Positions 45,253 through 62,915 of a DNA stretch of 64,000 nt are shown here, in pieces. Positions within the stretch are counted from its first letter, which is position 1. Each line of letters opens with the position of its first letter. The notes under the pieces are model-generated. The model worked only from the letters and a program-made list of their open reading frames with translations. It was not told where the DNA came from and did not search any database. Source of the DNA: Tetrahymena thermophila SB210 (taxonomy: Eukaryota; Ciliophora; Oligohymenophorea; Hymenostomatida; Tetrahymenidae); NCBI RefSeq assembly GCF_000189635.1, contig NW_002476052.1, forward strand, positions 63,784 to 127,783, written 5' to 3'. Made by a program: the position numbers and the translations under genes.

Positions 45253-46190
45253 TTGACTGAAAAAAATTCCAAATGGAGTTAATGGTTTCAGTTTTTAAGA
45301 AATAAATTAATAATTTATTAAGAAATTGCAATTTTGTCAAACAAAATAAATAAAATAAACAAACAAACAAATAAATAAACTAATAAACAAAATACATTAT
45401 TAAATTATTACATAATAACATCAAACTTAAGCTTCCATAAATACACATAATAATAACTAAATAAGTAAATAAATCCTACCTTTAAAGCTAAACTAATATT
45501 TAAAAATAAAATATTTAATAATTAACAAATCAATTTAATTTTTAATAAAATAAATTATTATATTAAGGTATTAGAGAAATCTATCTATCTATCTATCTAC
45601 CTTTTATTCAAATATATGTTTTTTAAAATATGCTTAACTAATCATTACTTTTACCACCTTTTAAACAATCATTTATTTATTTAATTAATAATTAGTAATA
45701 AATGTATCTATTGAAAATTTATAATATACTCTATACTTTCAATTTAGTATTAATTTATTTCCAGTTTTAAATTCATGTGGGTACCTAATATCGATTTTAC
45801 GTTTTATTTTTATCAAATTTTAGGTTTTTTTATAAAAGAGGAAAATGGGTATATATGCAAAATATTCATAAATTAGATATAAATTGTTCTAAATGGTTTT
45901 CTTTAATAATTATCAAATAAATAAAAAACAAAAAATATATATAAATATACATATTAAAAATTAATTTTAAGTTGTATTCTGAGTGCATTTATATGTGCGA
46001 GTATTTCTATTCTATTCTATCACCAATATGATTATACCTTAAAAAATATATTAGTTTTAAGTATTTATTAAAATAATAATTCAAGAAAGGCTAAATAAAT
46101 AGTGCCAAAATAATAAATAAGAGTTTTTGGTGCTGTTTATTTATTTTTAGCAATTAGTTGTAAACAATAAATAAACAAATTAATTTTTAC
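45253..46190. other. AT-rich intergenic region with CTAT microsatellite
   Basis: A CTAT repeat (five units) lies at 45579-45599. There may be terminal exons of the minus-strand leucine-rich-repeat gene here, because its last recognised repeat (46191-46280) ends in a splice donor rather than a stop, but I could not identify them. Confidence 0.4.
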
Positions 46191-49100
46191 TTTAGGTTGA
46201 GTATAAAAGTAGATAGTTTAACACATTATGATAAAGCAGAACCTAAGCATGAAATACCTTCATTTCCAATTTGATTACAACTTTAAATTTTATAAGATTA
46301 CTTAGAATTTCAATCAAATAAGAAATATAATTAATAGTTTACTAAAAAATTAAAATATAATGATAAAAAATAAAAAGAACCTTAACAAATGGAAGTAAAA
46401 AATAAAATTTTGCTTTTTTGTTTGCTTTTTATACATAATAGTTACTTACTTATTTACTTATTATTTGTAAAAACTGAAATTATAGGATAAAATTTAAACT
46501 TTTACCTTATATCTAGAGTTAAATTAGAGAGATTTATACAGTTTTATAAGATAGAACCTAAAAACTTTGCTCCTTCGTCAATAATTTAATTATCACTATT
46601 AAATAAAATTTGATAAACTGTCACATCGAATAAAAAAAGAAGGAACAATTTAATTATTTCTACTTCAAAGCATATATAGATATAATTTAAATACTGTAAT
46701 CAAAGAAAAATAAATAAAAGCTCAAATCCAAAAAAATAATAATTCTTTTAAAAATAATTATTTCAGATAAATAGATTGATAGTTAAAAATTAAAGAGAAT
46801 ATATGAGGATTTAAGTTAGTAATTATTTTAACATATAAATATCAAAAAAAATCTAATAGTGATTTGGATATTATAAGATTTTTGATAAATTTATTATATA
46901 TTTTATATTGATTTTTATAAAGTATACACTTCCAAGTTTTATATTCTAAATAAAGTTCATAGATACACAAGATTTAAATAGCTAGATTTGATATAAATAA
47001 ATATATTAGATAATTAAGTATTAAAATAAATTATTTTATTTTAATTTTTGTCATAAAAACTCTGTTTGTTTTCTAATTTTTCAATTTGAATATATGGTAT
47101 AAGATATTAAATTTTATTTATATTTATTTTAAGTAAGTAGACTTTTGTTTTATAAAATTAATTTTGTTAGCCTTAAATTCAAAAAGAAAAAACATTTAAT
47201 TTATTTATGAGATTACACAGTGTGAGTTTAATTAATTTTTTTACCTTAAATCGATTTCAAGAATAGTATGAGATTATAATTCAGAGTTTAATAGCTTTTG
47301 TTGTTATGAAATTAAATTTTAAAATCATGAATGAAATAATAAGTTAATTCTTACATCTTCAAGTTTACCAAAAGATTTTTTTTAATATATCATTTTATAT
47401 TATAAAAGTGTTTTTAATTTCAACTTTTTAATAATTTTTCTATTAAAAAATACTTAAAAAATTTTAATATAAAAGTCAGAGAATATTATCATTTAAAGTT
47501 GATTTATTTTAATTCTAAATTTGTTGAGAAATCATTAAATAAATTTATAAATAATTCTAAAATAAAAATTGATTCTGAAGAAAACATAATTTATTGAGAA
47601 GAAAATTAGTAAGAAATTCATTCAACTTTTTGCAAACAAGTTAACCTTGACTTTTTATATATATAAAATAATTAATTATCAAAAAACTTAAATATTTTTT
47701 AATTTAAAATTAATTTTTTGTTGTTTCTTATTTACTTTTTTAAAATAAAATATTAAATAAATCCTAAATTTGTTAAATAAATTTTTAAAACAAAAGTCTC
47801 AAACAAATAAAATTAGTGAATTTATTAATAATTAAATAATGGAAGAGCAGCAATTTGGAGGACTAATAAATTTACCAATAAACCACACTTATTGAATCCT
47901 TTTATCCAAGTATTTAATTTAGGATTTAGTTAAAATAGAAGAATAGAAGTTTTAATTCTTTCTTGGAAAGATTTTATCAAAAACTAAAAAAATATAGATA
48001 AAAAATTTATATTCATATTTTAATTAAACTAAATTAAGTTCTGAACAGAAAAATATAGGTTGATAGGCACACACATTGCTAGAGACAAGCAAGCAAGCAA
48101 GTAAATTTAATTAATTTAAAAAGAAAAAAAAATATCAATCTAATTAGATTGATTGTGCGTGCTTATTTGCTTGTTTGGTTTATAGATATTAATAGTAAAA
48201 ATATCAACTTTAATATTGATCAAATATTATAATTAGATTAATAATCATTATTCAACTAATTAATTTTGTAGTCAATAGGATAGATTTTATTTCAAAGGAT
48301 ATATATCAAAAATAACCAAAAGCCATACAAACAAACAAAAATAAATTTCTCAAAAAGAAAAAAGAAAGAATAACTCACTTAAAGAATAAGTATATACTGA
48401 TTATCAATGTACGCAGAAGAAATTAAAGTTGTCATATTAGGAAATTCAGGTTTTTTTTAGAACTTTTGACAATATTCCAAACAAAAGTATTAATTAACCC
48501 TATTTGGTTATTCTAAAAAAGGTGTTGGAAAAAGCAGCATTATGATGAGATTTGTCAAGGATGAGTTTTCAGCTACTTAGCCAACAACAATGGGTGCAGC
48601 ATTTATGTCAAAAATAATCAAGACAAATGATAATTAATTTAAATTTTAGGTAACAAATTATTTCTACTGATTATATTGAAAGAAAGAAATAAACAAACAT
48701 ATTAATTAATTGAACAGATTTGGGATACTGCAGGACAAGAGAAGTATAAATCTTTGGCACCCCTTTACTATAGAGGTAAGTAAACTTTATAAGTTTAATT
48801 TAAAATTGCAAAATTTATTTTTATATAAAAAGAGGCCAGAATAGGAATTGTAGTTTATGATATAACTTCTTTAGCTTCTTTTGGAGTATTAAAGACTTGG
48901 ATTACAGAATTACAAAAATAAGGCCCAGAAAACTTGAGTAAATAAATAAAATTAAGATGATTAAGGACTAGAATTGATTCATTGATTGTATTTATAAATA
49001 ATAAAAATAGTATTAGCAATAGTCGGCAATAAATCAGATTTACAGGATAAATAAGAAGTTCCTTACGAAGATGCAATGAATTTCGCTAAGGTATAATTTT

Positions 49101-52100
49101 AGAACAAACTAAACAAAGCAGCAATTTATTAATTAATTGAAATTAATAATTCTTTTATTAAAAAACTAAAAAGTAAGTTGACGCCCTTTTTGAGCTGACT
49201 AGTGCCAAAGAAAACAGAGGAATCAATGTAAAAATAGCATTTTATACATTTAGAATGATTTGAAATAAATAAACTTTTAATTATTCGTTCATTCATTTTA
49301 ATTCCTTCATTAATTTAATTGGTTGATTAATTATTTAGGATTTATTCATGAAGTTAGCTAGTAAAATCGAGTAGTAAAAAATATAAAACAGCATGAAAAA
49401 AAATGTCAGTAGTTAATCTTTTGCAGTTAATAGCAATTAACATAATAAACAAGGATCTTGCCCCTGTTGAAAATGAAGGAACTTTTTTAATATATGGGAT
49501 TAAAATCAATTTAAAGCATGTTTTAAAATAACTTAAAATAGTCATAAAAAATTATATAAAATAAATAAAAGAATTTATTAAAAGTAATTAATATACCTAC
49601 CTACCTAATTATTAATTTGATTGATTAAACTAATTAAATAATTTATAATTTTTATCAATACACATTTATAATAAAGTCTATCAATCAATAAATCTATCTA
49701 TCTACCTGCCTATTCTCTATAATACCTTCTTTGTATTATCCATATTATATATGCATGTATGTATGGATGGATGGATGCATATATGCTTACATCTTTTTCA
49801 GTTCTTATTATCATTTCACTCAAAATTTTATATCTAAGTATTCAACTAACATAAATTTTTATTGTATTAATTGATCAAATCTATTATCTTTTTCAATATA
49901 ACTTATTACATATTCTAATTGTCAATATCTTTATCTACTTATCATAATTTATTTATTTGTTTTATCAATAAATGTACATGTAAAAATTTATTTTTAATTG
50001 ATTTTAAGAAATTATTAACATTTAAGTAATTATTCTAATAAATATACAATCATTTATTGCTATTTGCTATTTATTTCTTTTGTAGCTAGCAAGTTACTTG
50101 TAAAGTATTTTTAATTTAATTTAATTTTATAAAAAGTAAAAAGTTATTTACTAATTTGTTTATTGATTATATGAATAAAATTAAAGTATTCATAATTTCT
50201 TTATAAAAAAATATATAAATATAATATAATTAGATTAAAAAAAGAAAAAAAAACAAATTTATTTTTAAATTCATTCTTTTTTTGTTTATGATATTTATAA
50301 ATATAAAAATAATAATAAATTTATCTATCTATCTATATATCTACCTACCTATCTATATTTTAGGTTAAATTATCCAATTCCAAAATATTATAAAATAAAA
50401 CAAATATAATATATTTATTATTCAAATATATTTATTTTTTTTCACCACTTTTATATCAATTATTATTTATTTTTAAGATAACTAATCTTTTTGATTTTAT
50501 GCACTTTAACTTCAATTATTTTGATTTATCAATTAAGCTGTTGCTTTTAATATAAATTAGTATAAATAACTAAAACCACATAAATAAATAGAATAAAATT
50601 TTTAAAATAAAATATTATATTTTAAATGAATTAATTATTAAAAAATAGTTAGAAAAATTAAAATAAAATGAAAAGAAAATCAAGCAAAAAGCTAAAAGAG
50701 TTAATTATATTTTTTTAAATACATTTTTAAATTAAAAAATATCTCAATCTAAAATAAATTAACATTTTTTACCAAATATGAACTGCCGAAATTGAAAGAT
50801 TAATGCATTTTCCTAAACCAGAACCTAGGCCTAATAATCCTTCTTCACCAATTTAATTTTCACTTTTTAATTATAGAAGAATAAATATATATTAGAAGGA
50901 AAAAATGAAGAGAAAATAAATAATAATCATAAATGAATGAATGAATTAATTAATTAGTAATAAAAGAAAAAGTTGAAAATGAAAATAAAAATTAAATTAA
51001 TAAAAAAACAATGAAAAAAAAAAAAAAACACAAGCAAAATTAAGAATAGAAAAAAAAATTAAATAAAAATTTAATAAATAAAATTAAATAAAATATTTAG
51101 TATGCTATTGTTTTAAATTCATTTTTATAATAAATAATTTCAAAATTCAAAACAAATAAATTGTTTTTACCTAATTTAAAGGGTCAAATTTGAGAGATTA
51201 GTGCACTTTCCTAAACCTTAACCTAAGCCTAATGCTCCTTTGTCACCAATATTATTGTACCTTTTAAATATTGAAGAAAAAATATAAAATTAACTTATTT
51301 GTTTGAAGGAAAAAATGAAAAAAAATATAAAAGCAAATAAATAAATTTAAATAGTTTATTATATTGCTTTATATCCATTTTTATATTAAGTAATAATATC
51401 AAAATCCAAAACAAATAAACTGTTTTTACGAAATTAAAAGTATGAATTTTGAGAGATTAGTGCACTTTCCTAAACCAGAACCTAAGCCTGATGAACCTTC
51501 ATCCCCAATTTAATTTCCACTTTTTAATGAATAAACAATATATAGTTAATTATTTATTAGAGGGAAAAAATACGAATTAATAAGAGATGAATTAATTAAT
51601 TAATTAATTAGCAAATAATAAAAGCAAAAGTTGAAAATGAAAAGATGAGTTAAATTAGTAAGAGAAGAAAATAACAAAAAAAACACAAGCAGTAAAAAAT
51701 CAAATAAAATGCTAAGAAATAAATTAATTAAAATATTTAGTATGCTATTGTTTTAAATTCATTTTTATATTCAAAAATGTCACTATAAAAAGCAAATAAA
51801 CTCTTTTTACTAAATCTAAAGCATCAGATATGAGAGATTAGTGCACTTTCCTAAGCCTAAACCTAAGCATGAGGCACCTTCATCGCCAATTTAATTGTAC
51901 CTTTTTATAAATTTAAGAAAAAATATATGATTAAATAGTTATTTAGTTAGAAGGAAATAATGAAGAAAAAATATGAAATAATAATTAATAATAAAAGTAA
52001 ATGTTGAAAATGAAAAAATGAGTTAAATTAACAAAAAGAAACAAACAAACAAACAAAAAAAACACAAGCGTAGCGAAAAAAAGAAAAAAAATCAAATAAA

Positions 52101-53042
52101 AAGCTAATAAATAATAAATTAAAAGAGTTAGTAATATAGTTTTAAATATATTTTTATATTCAAAAATATCACCTTCCAAAATAAATAATTATTTTTACCC
52201 GAGATTAAGTGTTAAATTTGAGAGATTAGAGCACTTTCCTAAACTAGAACCTAAAACTGATGCACCTTTATCACGAATTTAACACCAACTTTTTTAAATA
52301 TTGAAGAAAAATTATAAGTAAATTCGTTAGTTAGAAGGAAAAAATGAAGAAAAATATGTAATAATAAGAAATCAATAAATTAAATAAATATTAATTAAAA
52401 CAAAAGTTGATTTACCTAAGCTCAAGCTTCAACTTTGAGAGAATTGTGCACTTTACTAAACCAGATCCTAAGCCTGATGTACCTTCATCACCAATTTAAT
52501 TTCCACTTTTTAAATATTGAAGAAAAAAGAATATGGTTAATTAGTTAGTTAAAAGAAAAAATAAAGAAAAATTATAAATTAATAAATGAACAAATTAATT
52601 AGTTTATCATTCAAGAAAAAATTGAAAATTAAAAAAAGAAATTAAAAATAAATAAAGAAAGAAAGAAACAAAAAATTAATACAAGAAGAATAAAAAAAAA
52701 TAAATAAAATAAAAAGCTAATAAATAAATTTAAAGAGTTTGTTATTTTGTTTTAAATTCATTTTTATATTCAAAAATATCACAATCCAAACAAAACAAAT
52801 AAACTGTTTTTACTCAAGAGAAAGTGTCAAATTTGTGAGAATAGTGCACTTTCCTAATCCTTAACCTAAGTCTGATGCACCAACTACACCAAGACGAGAA
52901 TTTCTATTATAAAATAATATTGTAAATAAATTGAAAATTAATTATTAAAAAACATAAAAATATTAATATTAATAAATCAAATTTACCTGCTTAACAGATC
53001 AATATCAAGAGCCTAATGCGATTAAAGTGAAGAGTTTAAAAA
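46191..53042 (-). CDS. Leucine-rich-repeat protein built from one-repeat exons (both ends unresolved)
   Basis: Probable protein-protein interaction scaffold. Nine 90-nt exons (52814-52903, 52416-52505, 52199-52288, 51811-51900, 51430-51519, 51171-51260, 50773-50862, 46506-46595, 46191-46280) each code one repeat of the form x-N-Q-I-G-D-E-G-x-S-x-L-G-x-G-L-x-K-C-x-N-L-S-x-L-x-L-x-L; for example IGDEGTSGLGSGLVKC and LGSGLGKCTNLSKF. Every exon is 1 + 29 codons + 2 nt, so all introns are phase 2 and exons can be added or lost without frame change. An upstream 56-nt exon at 52987-53042 (QALDIDLLS) also ends in phase 2. This is the G-D-E-G type of LRR common in ciliates. The first and last exons are not identified; a coding fragment at the assembly gap may be the N-terminus. 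The last two repeats are separated by 4.2 kb holding a Rab gene and may be a remnant. Confidence 0.8.
46596..48406. other. AT-rich region, possible decayed LRR unit and weak frame
   Basis: At 47240-47310 on the minus strand a degenerate block ending in a GTAAAAAAA donor-like site (YNLILFLKSI) resembles the 3' half of an LRR exon with a broken 5' half. At 47838 a plus-strand ATG opens MEEQQFGGLINLPINH and is followed out of frame by FYPSIQFRIQLKQKNRSFNS; too short and inconsistent to call a gene. Nothing else supported. Confidence 0.35.
48407..49470 (+). CDS. Rab5/Rab21-type small GTPase (199 aa)
   Basis: Endocytic-type Rab. Seven exons: 48407-48449, 48522-48649, 48718-48775, 48833-48937, 49011-49090, 49174-49227, 49339-49470 (phases 1, 0, 1, 1, 0, 0), 200 codons. 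Motifs: VVILGNSGVGKSSIMMRF (P-loop split by intron 1 at the same codon as in the other Rab), switch I PTTMGAAF, which matches the Rab5/21/22 signature of Ile/Met-Gly-Ala-Ala-Phe, IWDTAGQEKYKSLAPLYYR (starts exon 3, same place as the other Rab; KYxSLAPxYYR is Rab5-like), NKSD in place of the usual NKxD, which it satisfies, and TSAKEN. C-terminus GSCPC is a CxC-type prenylation signal. The gene lies on the opposite strand between LRR exons, apparently inside that gene's largest intron. Confidence 0.95.
49471..50772. other. AT-rich region with tetranucleotide repeats
   Basis: Microsatellites: CTAT/CTAC at 49690-49715, ATGTATGGATGGATGGATGC at about 49756-49780, and CTAT/CTAC again at 50320-50355. 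No gene found. If the LRR gene is continuous this is part of its 4.2-kb intron. Confidence 0.45.
50773..52903 (-). repeat. Tandem array of seven exon-plus-intron LRR units
   Basis: Unit starts are 216-397 nt apart. Not only exons but introns are alike: several introns begin GTAAAAACAGTTTATTTG and contain AAATATGAATTTAAAACAATA-like blocks (for example near 51098-51130 and 51738-51770), and most exons are preceded by a T-rich/AAAAAG acceptor with a nearby CTTCA(A)TATTTAAAAAG-type context. Duplication therefore copied genomic blocks of exon plus intron. Confidence 0.8.
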
Positions 53043-53391
53043 CTTTTTTTGTTAGTAAAAATAATTTTAAACAAAATTAATAAAAAATAAATAATTACTT
53101 TTTATAGATCTTTAAACTATTTTATTTCTTACATCATTTATTTATTTATTTATTTATTAATTTTTCTTTAAAATATGAATAACAATTTTTGGAAATTTAA
53201 TTAATTAAATAACTATATAAATAAATAAATATAATTATTTATAAAATTAATTGAGAGAAATAGAAAAATAAATAATTATAATAATTTATAAATTTGCTTT
53301 TAGGAAGAGATATCACAAAAAATTTAGTATAACATACAAAATTAAATATTAATATTTCTATTTAAAACTTATATAGTTGTTTCTACATACA

Positions 53392-53454
53392 TTTGAAATA
53401 TCACCAAGCATTCCATTCATTAATTAATGATATTATGATTTGCGATATTTCAAA
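53392..53454. repeat. Short inverted-repeat element, copy 1
   Basis: Perfect 11-bp arms TTTGAAATATC (53392-53402) and GATATTTCAAA (53444-53454) enclose 41 bases that include CATTAATTAATGATATTATG. A related element with the same arms is at 57247. It could fold as a cruciform or be a tiny nonautonomous mobile element; no coding content. Confidence 0.5.
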
Positions 53455-53881
53455 CCATTATTAATTATATTATTTATGAAAATTTTTTTGTTTAATTTGA
53501 AAACAGTTTTCTGTATTTTTATTAATTTTTGTAAGCATTTTAAAATCAAATATAAAGAAAATAAAACATATATTTTTTAGATTTATTATTCAGATATTTT
53601 TATATTTATTTGTCCTTTTTTCACCACTTTTTTATCACCAAAATTTTATTATTTAGACAACTAATCTTTTTGATTATGATATGATAAATAATAATATATT
53701 TCATTTTATTAGCAAATTAATATTTAAGATATTTGCTATTAATAAAGAGGAATGAATGAATACCTTTCTTGTTTGTTTGTTTGTGATATCAAAAGTATAG
53801 AAACAAAATTTTCTCATATAAATAGAAAAAACTAGAATATTAAATTTTTGTTTGAGATAAATCTAACTAAATTTCAAGTTT

Positions 53882-54619: not shown

Positions 54620-56709
54620 ATGATCTCACTTAACCAAAAAAAATCTATCTTTTATAGTCGAAAATATTTTTAATCATAATTTAATAGAATTTTCTTGTGC
54701 TCAATTAAATAGCAAAAAAACTTTGATAAAATAAATCAAAAAAATAATAATAAAAAATTATTTTAATTATTTTAGAAATAAACCTTTTTAAATTGTATTC
54801 CAGTTTAATTATTTAGCAATTAAGTTGATAAAAACAAGCCAAAAATTATAAAAGCCAATGATGAACTACTTAATCGCTTTAATGAAAGTCCTTAAGATTC
54901 TTAAATTTGGTTTAAATTAGGTGTGGATCAATTTAATACCAATATGCATGAAGATGCAAAGAAGTTCTTTGAAAAAGCTATTGAATTAAATCCTTAATTG
55001 GGTGAAGCTTATATGTATTTAGGTGCTATTTCTCAACAAAAAGGAATGATAGAAGAGTCAAAAGAACTTTTATTAAAAGCTATTTAACTTGATGATAAAT
55101 GTTATAGTGCTCATATGTATATAGCAAACTATTATTTAGCTACTAACTAGGTAAAAAAGGCTATTAAATCCTGTGAAAAGGCATTGAAAATTGGACCAAT
55201 TAATCATTGGGCATATCATGTTTTAGGAATGTGCTATTACAGATAATAAGATCTAGAAAAAGCTAAAACATATTATTATAAAGCTATTGAATTAAACTCA
55301 AAAGTAAAAGAACCTTTTTTAAATTTAGGAAATATTTATTTAGAGTAAAATATGAAAAAAGAAGCTATAGAATGCTATGAAAATGCTTTGAAACTTAATA
55401 CAAAAAAAGAAGATTTATATTATATTTATACTTAATTAGGCTAAGCTAATTATTTCATTAATGAAAAAGAAGCTATAAAATACTTAAAATTAGCTATCTA
55501 GATAAAACCTGATATTAAATCTTTTTATTTATTAGCAATGTCATATATTTCTCTCGATAAAATAGAAGAGGCTAAGGAATGCTATCTAAAGGTTTTAGAA
55601 GGAGATCCTCATTCTTTAGATAAATATGAATATTTATTTAGTATGCCTCTCTCCAATTAGTAGTGGTAACGAGTGAAAAAAGGGCTAGAAAAATCCTTAA
55701 AATAAAATGATGATAATCCTTTTATCTATTATTTCCTAAGTTAAGCATGTGCTTATTTGAGTTTGATTGATGAGGCAATTCTATACGGTGAAATGTACTT
55801 AGAATATTATCCATTTAATTTTTTTACTCCAGATGAAGCATTATATAAAAAAGCAAGTATCTATCACTTTCTCATTACTTTTGGAAATAGGGGTAAATTA
55901 ATTTTTTTAATTTTTAACTCAAAAAATATTTTTTTTTTAATTTAAAATTATTTTGAAAAAATAAATAAATAATTAATTTAATGATTTTATTTTTATTTAA
56001 ATTAGATTCTACAGAAAAAGATAACTTAATTTAAGAAGCAAAGGAATGTTTTTAAAAATATTCTTTACTAATGTTGTCCCATTTTAATGTATCTTTGGGG
56101 TTTGTCAATATACTTTAGGGAAATGTAAAAGAGTCAATTAAAATATTTTAAGAGTATATGAAAACTTATCCTCATTATTAGCATGTTAACTTTTTAACTG
56201 GAATTAGTTATTATTTAGAAGGAATAACAGATAAAGCTTAATATCATTTTGAAAATTGTTTAAACACTAACCCTAAGCACAAAGATGCAATCTATAATCT
56301 AGGAATAGTTTATGATAAGCTCAAAAATTAAGATATGGCCAGACATTTTTATAAAAAAGCTTTTGAAATTAATCCTTCGTTTAAAGAAGTTTAATAAAAA
56401 ATAAATCTCAATTATGATCCTAATAATAAACCTCAAATCACTGAAGAACTTAAAAATATATGTATAAAAGCAATAGAAGGGGAAAATATTTTTATATAAT
56501 CTTTCTCTGTTGAATTATTCTAAGTAGCAATTATTTATGCTTTGTTAGATATGAAAAAAGAAGCTCTAAAATTTTGTGACTATGCTATTATTAATAATTT
56601 GTTATTTGCAGATGCTTATTGTCTTAAAGCAACAATATTAACTGAATTAGGTTAAAATTAAGAAGCAAAAGAATTTTTTGAAAAAGCTAAAAAGTTAAGA
56701 AATTTTTGA
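54620..56709 (+). CDS. Tetratricopeptide-repeat protein (658 aa)
   Basis: Two exons, 54620-55892 and 56006-56709, joined by a 113-nt phase-1 intron; 659 codons, TGA 56707-56709. From about residue 95 on the protein is a chain of 34-residue TPR units with the usual small-residue and Tyr/Ala pattern: DAKKFFEKAIELNPQLGEAY, AHMYIANYYLATNQVKKA, AKTYYYKAIELNSKVKEP, AIECYENALKLNTKK, AIYNLGIVYDKLKNQDMAR. At least ten repeats are recognisable across both exons, forming an alpha-solenoid for protein binding. No catalytic domain, so partners define its role; in ciliates such proteins often serve in intraflagellar transport, basal bodies or chaperone complexes, but nothing here decides between them. The N-terminal 80 residues are AT-biased, and the true start may be further downstream or in another exon. 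Confidence 0.88.
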
Positions 56710-57600
56710 ACAAATCATTTAGATAAATATTTAGATAGATAGATAGTTAGTTGCTGATTAAATAATCAATAAATAATAAAAAAATTTTAATTTATAAAAT
56801 TTTACAATATTGTTGATAGTTTTTTAACTTAAATTTTATATAAAATCTTAAATTTGCTCATAAAGCTATCTATTTTTTTTTATTTATGTTTTGACAAACA
56901 TATGTTGAATGTTTTATTAATTTTTAAATTCCTTAATATAAATTAAGTGAATATTTTAAATTTGAAATTACTTTTTAAAAAAATCATTAATAAATAAGAA
57001 TCATTTATTTACTATTTATCTATTAAAAAATTTAATCAAATTTTATAATATTTTTTATTATTATAAAACCTTTTTTTGTTTCTGTGTTTACTAAAATTTT
57101 TTGCTTAAAATTTCGAAAAAAAAAATTTTGAAAAAACTTTCTACATTTTGATAAATTTTTGTAAGCATTTTAATAAAATCAAATATAGAGAAAATAATTA
57201 ATTAAGATGTAGAACAAAAAAATGTTCATAATTAATAGAATATTCATTTGAAATATCACAAATCATGATGTCATTAATGGTTGGTTGGTGATATTTAAAA
57301 TGAAGGAAAAGCTATATATATATATTTTAACTTTTGATGTAAGTAATAATTAATTATAAATTAAAAATTTTCATTGATTATAAAATTTAATTCTAATTTA
57401 ATAATAAATATGAATCGAATATAAATAAATAAATAATAAGTATTTATTTTTATCTTAATTTATAAATTTATTTTTGAAGCAAGTCAAACTTAGAACCAGT
57501 TCACTGTAGTTTCTATTTAATTTTAAATGAAATATTTTACTTTAAATTAAATGAAATTTATGATTAAAAATTCATAAAAATAAGTAAAATTATATTAAAC
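56710..57600. other. AT-rich region downstream of the TPR gene
   Basis: Contains a GATA microsatellite (56730-56745), an ATAT run (57312-57327) and the second copy of the inverted-repeat element. A block TAAATTTTTGTAAGCATTTTA near 57150 is shared with 53520. No gene seen. Confidence 0.4.
57247..57300. repeat. Short inverted-repeat element, copy 2
   Basis: Arms TTTGAAATATC (57247-57257) and GATATTTAAAA (57290-57300; one mismatch against the perfect arm of copy 1). Interior ATCATGATGTCATTAATGG differs from copy 1. The two copies flank the gap fragment and the TPR gene. Confidence 0.45.
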
Positions 57601-60756: not shown

Positions 60757-61001
60757 TTTCGTTAATTTAAATTTCAGAGCAATATTTAATTATTATCAAT
60801 TTTAATATCAAGTTCAAATAATTAATTAAGAATCTTATCAAAGAAGCTGAATTATTAGAATATTTAATTTTATATGTCATAATTATTTTTTAAATTTATT
60901 TTATTTATTTTGTTTAAAATAAATTAATTTAGAAGTTCTTATCTAGAATTTTTCATCATTATTAAAATCAAAATTCATTAAAAACTTTAAAGAAAAAAAT
61001 T

Positions 61002-61073
61002 GATTCCTCCGAGGTTTGAACTCGGGACCTTCAGTGTGTTAGACTGACGTGATAACCACTACACTAAGGAATC
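61002..61073 (-). tRNA. tRNA-Val(AAC), copy 1
   Basis: 72-nt gene reading GATTCCTTAGTGTAGTGGTT at its 5' end. Acceptor stem GATTCCT/AGGAATC is fully paired; anticodon arm TCAGT-CTAACAC-ACTGA places AAC at 34-36 (valine; A34 is presumably inosine). T-arm CCGAG-TTCGAAC-CTCGG is perfect and contains the B-box of the internal RNA polymerase III promoter; the A-box lies in the D-arm. CCA is not encoded, as in eukaryotes. A T7 terminator follows two bases after the 3' end. Confidence 0.97.
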
Positions 61074-61221
61074 CTTTCTATTAACAAATTAATATAGTTT
61101 TAACTAATTTTGTTAAATTACTTATAATTTTTATATTAATTAAGAATAAAAATTTAGTTTTAACATTATTAATGATAGAATTCAATCATAAATATTTTTT
61201 AAAAAAAAGATAGATAAAAAT

Positions 61222-61293
61222 GATTCCTCCGAGGTTTGAACTCGGGACCTTCAGTGTGTTAGACTGACGTGATAACCACTACACTAAGGAATC
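61222..61293 (-). tRNA. tRNA-Val(AAC), copy 2
   Basis: Identical to copy 1 across all 72 bases. Starts 220 bases from copy 1. T5 terminator after the 3' end; the 5' flank (CTTTCTGTTAATT on the plus strand) is like that of copies 1 and 6. Confidence 0.97.
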
Positions 61294-61550
61294 CTTTCTG
61301 TTAATTAAACATTTAGTCATATTAATTTTTTTTCCAATTAAATATTACAAAAATATATTCTAAAATAAGCCAAAAATAAGCCTAAAACATCATTTTTATT
61401 GCATTTATAGTTAAATGATTTAAAAATAATTATAAAAAATAATCCATTGCAATAAAGCTAGAAATAAAAGTAGTTTTATATAGAAAGAAAGATATCAAGA
61501 ATTTGAATGAAAAGAATCAAAACAATATCATTAACATTAAATAAAAAAAT

Positions 61551-61622
61551 GATTCCTCCGAGGTTTGAACTCGGGACCTTCAGTGTGTTAGACTGACGTG
61601 ATAACCACTACACTAAGGAATC
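61551..61622 (-). tRNA. tRNA-Val(AAC), copy 3
   Basis: Identical gene; T7 terminator. Flank GTTTATGCTAATAAAATAAG differs from copies 1-2 and belongs with copies 5, 7 and 8. Longest spacing in the array before it (329 bases start to start). Confidence 0.97.
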
Positions 61623-61751
61623 GTTTATGCTAATAAAATAAGTTTTGCAACTGATTTTATTAATTTTATTGATCATAATTTAATTAAAAAAATTATTATT
61701 TATTTTAGTTAAACATGATATTCATCTAAAATTATTTTGTTTAAAAAAAAT

Positions 61752-61823
61752 GATTCCTCCGAGGTTTGAACTCGGGACCTTCAGTGTGTTAGACTGACGT
61801 GATAACCACTACACTAAGGAATC
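61752..61823 (-). tRNA. tRNA-Val(AAC), copy 4
   Basis: Identical gene; T8 terminator; 201 bases from copy 3. Confidence 0.97.
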
Positions 61824-61970
61824 GTTTGATGATAAATAATAAAATGTTTAGATCAAATTTAATTCATTTTGATAGTTTTTTTTTATTTATTAAAAAAAAG
61901 TAAAAATTAGCAAATTTGTTTAGAAATTATAATTAATTATCTTAAGACATTTAGAAAAATTATAAAAAAT

Positions 61971-62042
61971 GATTCCTCCGAGGTTTGAACTCGGGACCTT
62001 CAGTGTGTTAGACTGACGTGATAACCACTACACTAAGGAATC
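61971..62042 (-). tRNA. tRNA-Val(AAC), copy 5
   Basis: Identical gene; T6 terminator; flank GCTTATGCTATATAATCAAA matches copy 7. Confidence 0.97.
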
Positions 62043-62196
62043 GCTTATGCTATATAATCAAATTTTGCAATTAACTTTGCTAATTTCTTTTGTAAAATTA
62101 ATAGTTTATTTATTAAACTAAAAAATAATTATTTTTATTATTGATTTAATAGAAATGAAAATGTTTTTATTTGTTTACTTAATGAATTAAAAAAAT

Positions 62197-62268
62197 GATT
62201 CCTCCGAGGTTTGAACTCGGGACCTTCAGTGTGTTAGACTGACGTGATAACCACTACACTAAGGAATC
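62197..62268 (-). tRNA. tRNA-Val(AAC), copy 6
   Basis: Identical gene; T7 terminator; flank CTTTCTATACATTAAAA groups with copies 1 and 2. Confidence 0.97.
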
Positions 62269-62428
62269 CTTTCTATACATTAAAAAATTAATCATAGTAA
62301 TTTTATTAAATTTATCTAAAATATTATATTAAATATTTATTTAAAAAAATTCATATTAGGCTTAAAATAAATTAATTTGATTTGAATTAATTTACATACT
62401 CAAAAATTTAGTTAATAAAAAAAAAATT

Positions 62429-62500
62429 GATTCCTCCGAGGTTTGAACTCGGGACCTTCAGTGTGTTAGACTGACGTGATAACCACTACACTAAGGAATC
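62429..62500 (-). tRNA. tRNA-Val(AAC), copy 7
   Basis: Identical gene; the longest terminator (T10) of the array; flank GCTTATGCTATTTACC. Confidence 0.97.
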
Positions 62501-62639
62501 GCTTATGCTATTTACCTATTTTTGCAACTAATTTTGTCAAAATTTATTATAATATCATTTTTAAAAATTATAAATCATAACATGTAATTTTTTTAGATTA
62601 TTTTGAATAGAATTTCTTTGGAGAAAAAAAATTAAAAAT

Positions 62640-62711
62640 GATTCCTCCGAGGTTTGAACTCGGGACCTTCAGTGTGTTAGACTGACGTGATAACCACTAC
62701 ACTAAGGAATC
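62640..62711 (-). tRNA. tRNA-Val(AAC), copy 8
   Basis: Identical gene; T5 terminator; flank GATTATGCTATGAATTAATT. Confidence 0.97.
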
Positions 62712-62843
62712 GATTATGCTATGAATTAATTTTAGCAAATTTTGTCAACCAATTTTTAATTAAAATATAATTAAATTTATAAAATTAATAGAACATTTTT
62801 ATTTAGTTCTTTAATAATTTTCATTTTATAAAAATACAAAAAT

Positions 62844-62915
62844 GATTCCTCCGAGGTTTGAACTCGGGACCTTCAGTGTGTTAGACTGACGTGATAACCA
62901 CTACACTAAGGAATC
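62844..62915 (-). tRNA. tRNA-Val(AAC), copy 9
   Basis: Identical gene; T5 terminator. It is the 5'-most copy on the minus strand; beyond it no tenth copy is seen. Confidence 0.97.

What the first reader, a model, noticed from the sequence alone, without database searches (positions are those of the whole stretch)
50773..52903. LRR gene in which one 90-nt exon equals one 30-residue repeat, with all introns in phase 2
Seven exons of exactly 90 nt, each starting with one base and ending with two bases of a split codon, each code a single G-D-E-G-type leucine-rich repeat. Introns are also similar between units, so whole exon-intron blocks were copied. Symmetric exons allow repeat number to change without breaking the frame and allow alternative splicing to alter the array. 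This is a clean modular system for making binding-surface diversity.
Basis: seen in the sequence. Interest (0 to 1): 0.75.

Follow-up and report, generated by a model that had tools for sequence, protein, structure and literature searches.

The report
Ordinary Tetrahymena one-exon-per-repeat LRR gene
The finding is a complete-looking, ordinary member of a large, already published family of Tetrahymena genes in which each 90-base exon encodes one leucine-rich repeat; what the comparison adds is that the intron cuts each repeat in the middle of its fastest-changing, probably ligand-facing residues.

Summary
In detail: seven exons of exactly 90 nt, AG/GT-bounded, phase 2, open in the ciliate code. 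They lie on the minus strand; 3 of 7 carry literal GDEG, and the gene extends beyond the array. I model ten exons (ATG at 53137, leader exons of 39 and 56 nt, seven 90-nt exons, a 58-nt terminal exon whose TGA ends at 50512), giving an intact 260-aa LRR_6 protein; its first intron is phase 0. The genome is almost certainly Tetrahymena thermophila. The kind is published (Xiong et al. 2019, PMC6564038): 1,500 of 1,874 T. thermophila LRR genes hold such exons, spread by exon shuffling. Here a 27-nt exon core occurs 3,796 times (≤3 mismatches; reversed control 0), and 18 genes with both ends recognised carry 6 to 20 exons. What I did not find in that paper: across 317 exons, residues 28, 30 (split codon) and 1 vary most. 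Neutral-calibrated dN/dS for residues 1, 3 and 28, a group chosen after seeing the data, is 2.1-2.6, against 0.2 for the scaffold. They flank the splice junction, so recombination in introns would join two halves of one putative binding strand. Binding, expression and exon skipping are untested.

The parts
53290..53373 (-). Conserved 5' flank of this LRR gene subfamily, upstream of the ATG (promoter / 5' UTR by inference)
   Evidence: Part of the stretch 52954-53373 that matches 40 other places in the genome at 70-79% identity (lower bound: 40 of 1,007 candidates were scored); alignment of 29 paralogous leaders
53099..53137 (-). Exon 1, 39 nt, ATG start (MMQEIKQFKDLQK)
   Evidence: ATG, reading frame and donor seen in sequence; conserved in the leader alignment
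53043..53098 (-). Intron 1, 56 nt, phase 0
   Evidence: GT..AG, in frame
52987..53042 (-). Exon 2, 56 nt, ends in phase 2
52904..52986 (-). Intron 2, 83 nt, phase 2
52814..52903 (-). LRR exon 1 of 7, 90 nt (its first 25 nt or so differ from the other units but resemble the same place in paralogous leaders)
   Evidence: 100.8 bits
52416..52505 (-). LRR exon 2 of 7, 90 nt
   Evidence: 126.2 bits
52199..52288 (-). LRR exon 3 of 7, 90 nt
   Evidence: 125.4 bits
51811..51900 (-). LRR exon 4 of 7, 90 nt
   Evidence: 125.1 bits
51430..51519 (-). LRR exon 5 of 7, 90 nt
   Evidence: 138.0 bits
51171..51260 (-). LRR exon 6 of 7, 90 nt
   Evidence: 136.6 bits
50773..50862 (-). LRR exon 7 of 7, 90 nt
   Evidence: 113.1 bits
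50570..50772 (-). Last intron, 203 nt, phase 2, similar to the array introns at its 5' part
50512..50569 (-). Terminal exon, 58 nt, TGA stop (YLYQFILKATAQLINQNN*)
   Evidence: in the 31 aligned paralogous tails the start N-L-x-Q-F-I-L-K recurs, 16 of 31 have AG directly before it and 18 of 31 show a stop in the stretch translated
50400..50510 (-). Conserved 3' flank (3' UTR / terminator by inference)
   Evidence: 40 matches in the own genome, self included (lower bound: 40 of 294 candidates were scored)
46191..46595 (-). Two older 90-nt LRR exons (46595-46506 and 46280-46191) of a second LRR gene or relic
   Evidence: 50.3 and 54.4 bits against -66 best in 20 shuffles
47245..47393 (-). Likely 5' end of that second gene: 39-nt ATG exon 47393-47355, 60-nt intron, 50-nt exon 47294-47245
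   Evidence: Leader matrices 22.8 and 20.1 bits against shuffle tops of 8.0 and -0.9; in-frame reading; the exons between 47244 and 46596 could not be modelled

Best explanation
This is a complete-looking, probably functional, short (7-repeat) member of the Tetrahymena '90-bp exon' LRR family. It is made by repeated copying of a 90-nt exon together with a long AT-rich phase-2 intron between a fixed leader (ATG exon + second exon) and a fixed terminal exon. Because units are symmetric, unequal crossing over or conversion between homologous introns can add, drop or swap repeats without breaking the frame (shown: anatomy, intron homology, 6-20 units among paralogues; inferred: the recombination events). 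The product is predicted to be a solenoid of 30-residue RI/NOD-type LRRs without a detectable signalling domain (tested: Pfam). Each repeat keeps a hydrophobic scaffold under purifying selection. Residues around the splice junction (28, split residue 30, 1 and 3; x5, x7, x8 and x10 of LxxLxLxxNxL) vary most along the strand, and 1, 3 and 28 change faster than synonymous sites (30 was not tested for this). The simplest role is binding of varied, possibly bacterial or food-derived, partners (inferred; suggested in PMC6564038).
For: Exact exons, splice sites and phase. Complete 783-nt CDS, 260 aa, no internal stop. Leader conserved in 29 paralogous leaders; leader-exons-tail order in 17 of 20 fetched loci plus the window, with 6-20 exons (lower bounds, since diverged exons are missed). 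262 of 277 exons have AG/GT at exactly 90 nt and 277 of 277 are open; in L051 and L052, picked from the exon-core list, 30 of 30 (these two overlap L044 and L045). 3,796 core matches against 0 control. LRR_6 64.5 bits, cut-off 23.4; no NACHT, NB-ARC or kinase up to E = 0.01. Six Leu columns (12, 16, 22, 25, 27, 29) at 88-99% in 270 exons. Calibrated dN/dS of columns 1, 3, 28: 2.61 [1.26-5.19], 2.21 [1.89-2.59] and 2.11 [1.96-2.26] in three identity bands; scaffold 0.19-0.21; all columns 0.65-0.75. Synonymous change is not raised at these three columns (0.97 and 0.90 of the mean). Neutral simulation at about the real mean divergence 0.97-1.08; locus sets A and B give 2.19 and 2.23. TERT fragment 135/135 identical to 6d6v_A. 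Published family: PMC6564038.
Against: No transcript or protein evidence is held for this gene. The terminal exon is clean here, but only 16 of 31 aligned paralogues keep AG directly before it, so its boundaries are the weakest part of the model. The group 1, 3, 28 was formed after seeing per-column rates on the same exons; with fast columns chosen on one half of the loci and tested on the other, the ten fastest give 1.43 [1.30-1.55]. Counting only codons that differ at one base, the excess at 1, 3, 28 falls to 1.75 (closest 40 pairs) and 1.21 (785 pairs); multi-base codons carry much of the signal. The pairs are not independent, and 27 of the 40 closest are within one locus. The residue-to-face assignment rests on alignment with NOD2-type LRRs and general LRR knowledge; no model was built. 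[quoted passage not shown] One of 254 exon junctions reads TGA, so some paralogues may be broken.
Confidence: 0.86

Rival explanations
1. Neutral expansion: the arrays spread mainly because exon-intron units (with a nearby REP retrotransposon in the germline) duplicate easily; most genes are dispensable, and residue patterns reflect only fold constraints plus relaxed sites.
For: Overall calibrated dN/dS is high (0.65-0.75) and synonymous change is near the intron-derived expectation (1.10). PMC6564038 reports REP association, low expression of species-specific genes (a section title in the outline) and a median Ka/Ks of about 0.4 for LRR genes found in one or two species.
Against: 277 of 277 exons are open, the leucine scaffold is held at 0.2, and three strand residues together exceed 1 with confidence intervals above 1 (group chosen after the fact). 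Relaxation alone gives at most 1.
Confidence: 0.3
2. This copy is a pseudogene or untranscribed fragment that happens to keep frame.
For: No transcript data; the neighbouring LRR copy at 46-47.4 kb could not be modelled as a whole gene.
Against: Continuous 783-nt frame over ten exons with conserved start, splice sites and a stop; the odd 5' part of the first 90-nt exon is shared with paralogous leaders, so it is not decay of this copy.
Confidence: 0.12
3. Alternative splicing of symmetric exons makes variable LRR arrays from one gene.
For: Every 90-nt exon is skippable in frame.
Against: No evidence was available either way; the seven exons all have AG before and GTAAA after, and a text search of the main text of PMC6564038 for 'alternative splic' gives 0 hits.
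Confidence: 0.07

Closest known systems
[quoted passage not shown] 2019, PMC6564038)
   Same: Exactly 90-bp exons in tandem, phase 2 on both sides, six conserved leucines, long homologous introns, variable unit number, thousands of exons in the genome; very probably the same species (TERT test).
   Different: No anatomical difference found. The fixed leader and terminal exon of this subfamily, and the fast residues around the split codon, are not described in the sections and passages I read.
Vertebrate NOD2-type / RI-type LRRs (PDB 5irm, 5irl; Pfam LRR_6)
   Same: LxLxxNxIGDEG repeat pattern; 45-bit match to 5irm (listed there as 'Uncharacterized protein', NOD2 by recall).
   Different: 30 rather than about 28 residues per repeat (the alignment opens two-residue gaps at some strands); no NACHT, CARD or other domain found.
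Plant NLR and receptor LRRs with variable strand residues (PMC8226289, PMC3138743; passages only)
   Same: Variable x positions of LxxLxLxx, which those papers place on the concave face and link to binding.
   Different: Here the variable stretch is split between two exons. No homology beyond the LRR fold is claimed.

Membership tests
Tetrahymena 90-bp exon LRR genes | Tandem array of at least three exactly 90-bp exons | tested here: met
   Seven
Tetrahymena 90-bp exon LRR genes | Phase 2 introns on both sides of the 90-bp exons | tested here: met
   8 of 8 introns touching them
Tetrahymena 90-bp exon LRR genes | Six strongly conserved leucines per exon | tested here: met
   Columns 12, 16, 22, 25, 27, 29 at 88-99% in 270 exons
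Tetrahymena 90-bp exon LRR genes | Tetrahymena genome | tested here: met
   Ciliate telomerase RNA 161.9 bits; TERT fragment 135/135 identical to 6d6v_A (that the entry is T. thermophila is recalled)
Tetrahymena 90-bp exon LRR genes, group III (youngest) | Masked by one of the published consensus repeats | not testable with these tools
The stand-in, nucleotide-level repeats within the gene, is present
Tetrahymena 90-bp exon LRR genes, group III (youngest) | Intron length peak near 257 bp | tested here: inconclusive
   Window introns between 90-nt exons 127-308 nt; median 291 nt over 245 introns of the window and 20 related loci
Tetrahymena 90-bp exon LRR genes, group III (youngest) | Germline REP retrotransposon or its 54-bp tail nearby | not tested
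   I had neither the tail sequence nor the micronuclear genome
RI-type LRR (Pfam LRR_6) | Score above Pfam's curated cut-off | tested here: met
   64.5 bits, cut-off 23.4
RI-type LRR (Pfam LRR_6) | Repeat length 28-29 residues (recalled) | tested here: not met
   Exactly 30
NLR immune receptors | NACHT or NB-ARC domain | tested here: not met
   Only LRR families up to E = 0.01

The most novel reading that the evidence does not exclude
In this family the intron sits inside the binding strand. The phase-2 intron splits the codon of the most variable residue (30, x7), with x5 on the upstream exon and x8 and x10 on the downstream exon; the last three test as changing faster than synonymous sites. 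Germline recombination in the long homologous introns therefore not only changes repeat number but creates new chimeric ligand-facing strands while leaving the scaffold untouched: a heritable, exon-encoded combinatorial recognition repertoire in a unicellular grazer.
Probability: 0.3. Interest if true: 0.62.

Novelty: already known. Interest (0 to 1): 0.34.

Why it matters
The gene itself is one of well over a thousand known relatives (1,500 T. thermophila LRR genes with at least one 90-bp exon, PMC6564038). It matters as a clean example that fixes the grammar of a subfamily (leader, n x 90-nt units, terminal exon) and lets the published exon-shuffling idea be sharpened into a testable claim: the most variable residues flank the splice junction, so recombination in introns would remodel one binding strand at a time. 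If true, it would be a eukaryotic germline analogue of combinatorial receptor diversity in a lab-tractable organism.

Tried and rejected
Intron-tree versus exon-tree timing: no correlation. In an almost star-like family this separates neither reshuffling nor simple expansion, so I draw no dating from it. A linkage-decay test between parts of exons was weak for the same reason.

'Introns more conserved than exons': raw identity suggested it (0.82 against 0.74). With a shuffled baseline for AT-rich sequence (about 0.5 against 0.28) and synonymous change at 1.10 of the intron-derived expectation, the difference is no longer convincing; dropped.

Consensus-based per-column rates gave larger values at residues 1, 3, 6, 7 and 28, but synonymous change at columns 1, 6 and 7 rose as well, a sign that the 'ancestor' is wrong there. 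I replaced it by pairwise counts with a neutral simulation, after which the loop residues 6 and 7 are not convincing (0.92-1.40). The grouping of columns used there was made.

Avoidance of accidental TGA at exon junctions: one seen, 1.9 expected; no effect.

Three-unit super-repeat, suggested by intron lengths (308-127-298, 291-169-308) and by the longest self-match (50653-51878 to 51694-52881, 72% over 1258 columns): similarity by lag shows no clear peak at three units, so not claimed.

Species from a big window protein: no PDB match; settled by TERT instead. Literature comparison for 72-bp or 84-bp one-exon LRR genes: no papers held with those terms.

Dropped rows: for the leader alignment, loci L006, L008 and L042 (duplicates), matches weaker than 1e-30 or spanning under 300 nt; for the tail alignment, nine duplicate loci, matches weaker than 1e-25 and those ending before query position 300. 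In the unit analyses, exons within 140-160 nt of a locus end, exons below 60 bits and repeated sequences were left out (317 units kept; 268). Loci L010-L029 were chosen for similarity to the whole stretch, introns included; L030-L049 for similarity to its tail or leader, and L030 and L040 hold parts of the window gene itself.
Full report
WHAT IS THERE. On the minus strand of 50773-52903 lie seven exons of exactly 90 nt with AG before and GT after each. Read with TAA and TAG as glutamine they are open, start with the third base of a codon and end with the first two bases of the next. A weight matrix seeded with them and trained on paralogues scores them at 101-138 bits, while the best score in 20 shuffles of the window is -66. 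Three of the seven carry literal GDEG.

THE WHOLE GENE. The stretch just upstream (52954-53373) matches 40 other places genome-wide, and the stretch just downstream (50400-50510) gives 40 matches with self; both are lower bounds. Aligning 29 paralogous leaders and 31 paralogous tails gives a model: ATG exon 53137-53099, a 56-nt phase-0 intron, exon 53042-52987, an 83-nt phase-2 intron, the seven 90-nt exons, a 203-nt phase-2 intron and a terminal exon 50569-50512 ending in TGA. The 783-nt coding sequence reads through without an internal stop and gives 260 residues. The terminal exon is the least certain part: 16 of the 31 aligned paralogues have AG directly before it and 18 of 31 show a stop within the stretch translated. 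Pfam finds LRR_6 (64.5 bits, cut-off 23.4) and otherwise only LRR_4 below its cut-off. The best sequence matches in the PDB are LRR proteins, second among them 5irm, listed as 'Uncharacterized protein' (NOD2 by recall).

HOW COMMON. A 27-nt core of the exon with up to 3 mismatches occurs 3,796 times in the genome, against 0 for the reversed pattern. In the 20 loci fetched for similarity to the window stretch plus the window itself, 277 exons were found; 262 have AG and GT at exactly 90 nt and all 277 are open. Eighteen genes (one in each of 17 loci and the window's own) show leader, exons and tail in order, with 6 to 20 exons; 3 of the 20 loci held no complete one. One of the 18 (L010) contains a gap of more than 1,500 nt, and exons below the score limit are missed, so counts are lower bounds. 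Two further loci picked from the exon-core list gave 30 of 30 exons with the same features; they overlap L044 and L045, which the leader search had already brought in.

WHOSE GENOME. It holds a ciliate telomerase RNA (161.9 bits). A 135-residue stretch of its telomerase protein is identical to PDB 6d6v chain A, which I know as Tetrahymena thermophila. The window lies at C377:63784-127783.

WHAT IS KNOWN. Xiong et al. 2019 (PMC6564038; read: abstract, sections 6, 9, 10, 11, 23, 25, 27, the first of two parts of section 15, and passages found by term) describe this kind of gene in ten Tetrahymena species: exactly 90-bp exons, more than 98% of the introns before them in phase 2, 1,500 of 1,874 T. 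thermophila LRR genes with at least one such exon, 1 to 51 of them per gene, clonal expansions, ectopic recombination and REP association. They propose sensing of bacteria or food as one possible role. This gene meets the anatomical features that I could test, except that intron length is inconclusive. It is therefore an ordinary member of a published family, very probably one of the genes counted there (not checked against their gene list).

WHAT THE COMPARISON ADDS. Over 317 exons the residues with the highest entropy are the split residue 30 (3.74 bits, from 254 junctions), residue 1 (3.72) and residue 28 (3.16), followed by 7, 6 and 3. At the nucleotide level, positions 83, 89, 90, 1, 2, 3 and 4 fall to 0.28-0.38 pairwise identity, while the asparagine codon next to them (positions 5-7) stays at 0.82-0.92. 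This is residue-specific, not decay at an exon edge. With mutation rates taken from the introns, and synonymous change as the scale, residues 1, 3 and 28 give dN/dS of 2.61 [1.26-5.19], 2.21 [1.89-2.59] and 2.11 [1.96-2.26] in three identity bands (40, 785 and 3,000 sampled pairs). The eight scaffold columns give 0.19-0.21, all columns 0.65-0.75. A neutral simulation at about the real mean divergence returns 0.97-1.08 in every group (a more diverged one 1.05-1.18), and two separately gathered sets of exons (261 and 56, duplicates removed) give 2.19 and 2.23.

AGAINST IT. The group 1, 3, 28 was formed after seeing column rates on the same exons; choosing the ten fastest columns on half the loci and testing on the other half gives 1.43 [1.30-1.55]. 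With single-base codon changes only, the values are 1.75 and 1.21. Pairs share exons, and 27 of the 40 closest pairs are within one locus. I read it as moderate evidence for diversifying selection on the strand. The overall value below 1 agrees in direction with the purifying selection reported in the paper.

WHY THE POSITION MATTERS. Aligned to NOD2-type repeats, residues 27 and 29 are the two strand leucines, 2 is the asparagine and 4 the following isoleucine, so 28, 30, 1 and 3 are x5, x7, x8 and x10 of LxxLxLxxNxL. Two papers on plant LRRs (PMC8226289 and PMC3138743, passages only) place the x residues of LxxLxLxx on the concave, often ligand-binding face; the second also reports few positively selected residues and none on the concave face of EFR. 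The intron falls inside residue 30. Recombination within introns would thus pair residue 28 and the first two bases of codon 30 of one unit with residues 1 and 3 of another. The terms hypervariable, concave, ligand, solvent, positive selection and diversifying have 0 hits in the main text of PMC6564038. Three further searches of the held library listed no other paper that, by title and start of abstract, deals with selection or shuffling in these genes; most subscription papers are not covered.

WHAT REMAINS OPEN. No transcript data, no second strain and no structure were available. Exon skipping, allelic unit variation and binding are untested. Exon-intron similarity is uncorrelated within the gene and over 268 units, which cannot tell reshuffling from a star-like expansion.

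Noticed in passing
window 61001-62915, minus strand: Nine tandem tRNA-Val (AAC) genes, about 200-330 nt from start to start, all with the same Rfam score (65.6 bits).
   Followed up: no
window 46191-47393, minus strand: A second, older LRR gene or relic of the same subfamily: leader exons at 47393-47355 and 47294-47245 and two 90-nt exons at 46595-46506 and 46280-46191; a truncated exon-like stretch (YNHIGDR) follows near 46,000.
   Followed up: partly
window 48407-49480, plus strand: Split Ras/Rab-type GTPase gene (PF00071, 90.6 bits for the first 77 residues; the 3' extent is read by eye) lying between the two LRR genes.
   Followed up: partly
window 53558-53682, minus strand: A second copy of the LRR-gene 3' flank sequence lies upstream of this gene (60-nt core 83% identical to 50437-50496), as if an upstream LRR neighbour had been lost; the tail weight matrix does not recognise it. 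A 100-base run of N follows from about 54076.
   Followed up: partly
window 53362-53492 and 57213-57330: Inverted pair of similar sequence (72% over 131 columns), just at the outer edge of the conserved leader.
   Followed up: no
window 54620-55984, plus strand: Open frame with TPR repeats (PF00515, 130 bits).
   Followed up: no
related genes in L010-L049: One of 254 exon-exon junctions reads TGA, the only stop of this code, so at least one paralogue may be truncated at a junction.
   Followed up: no
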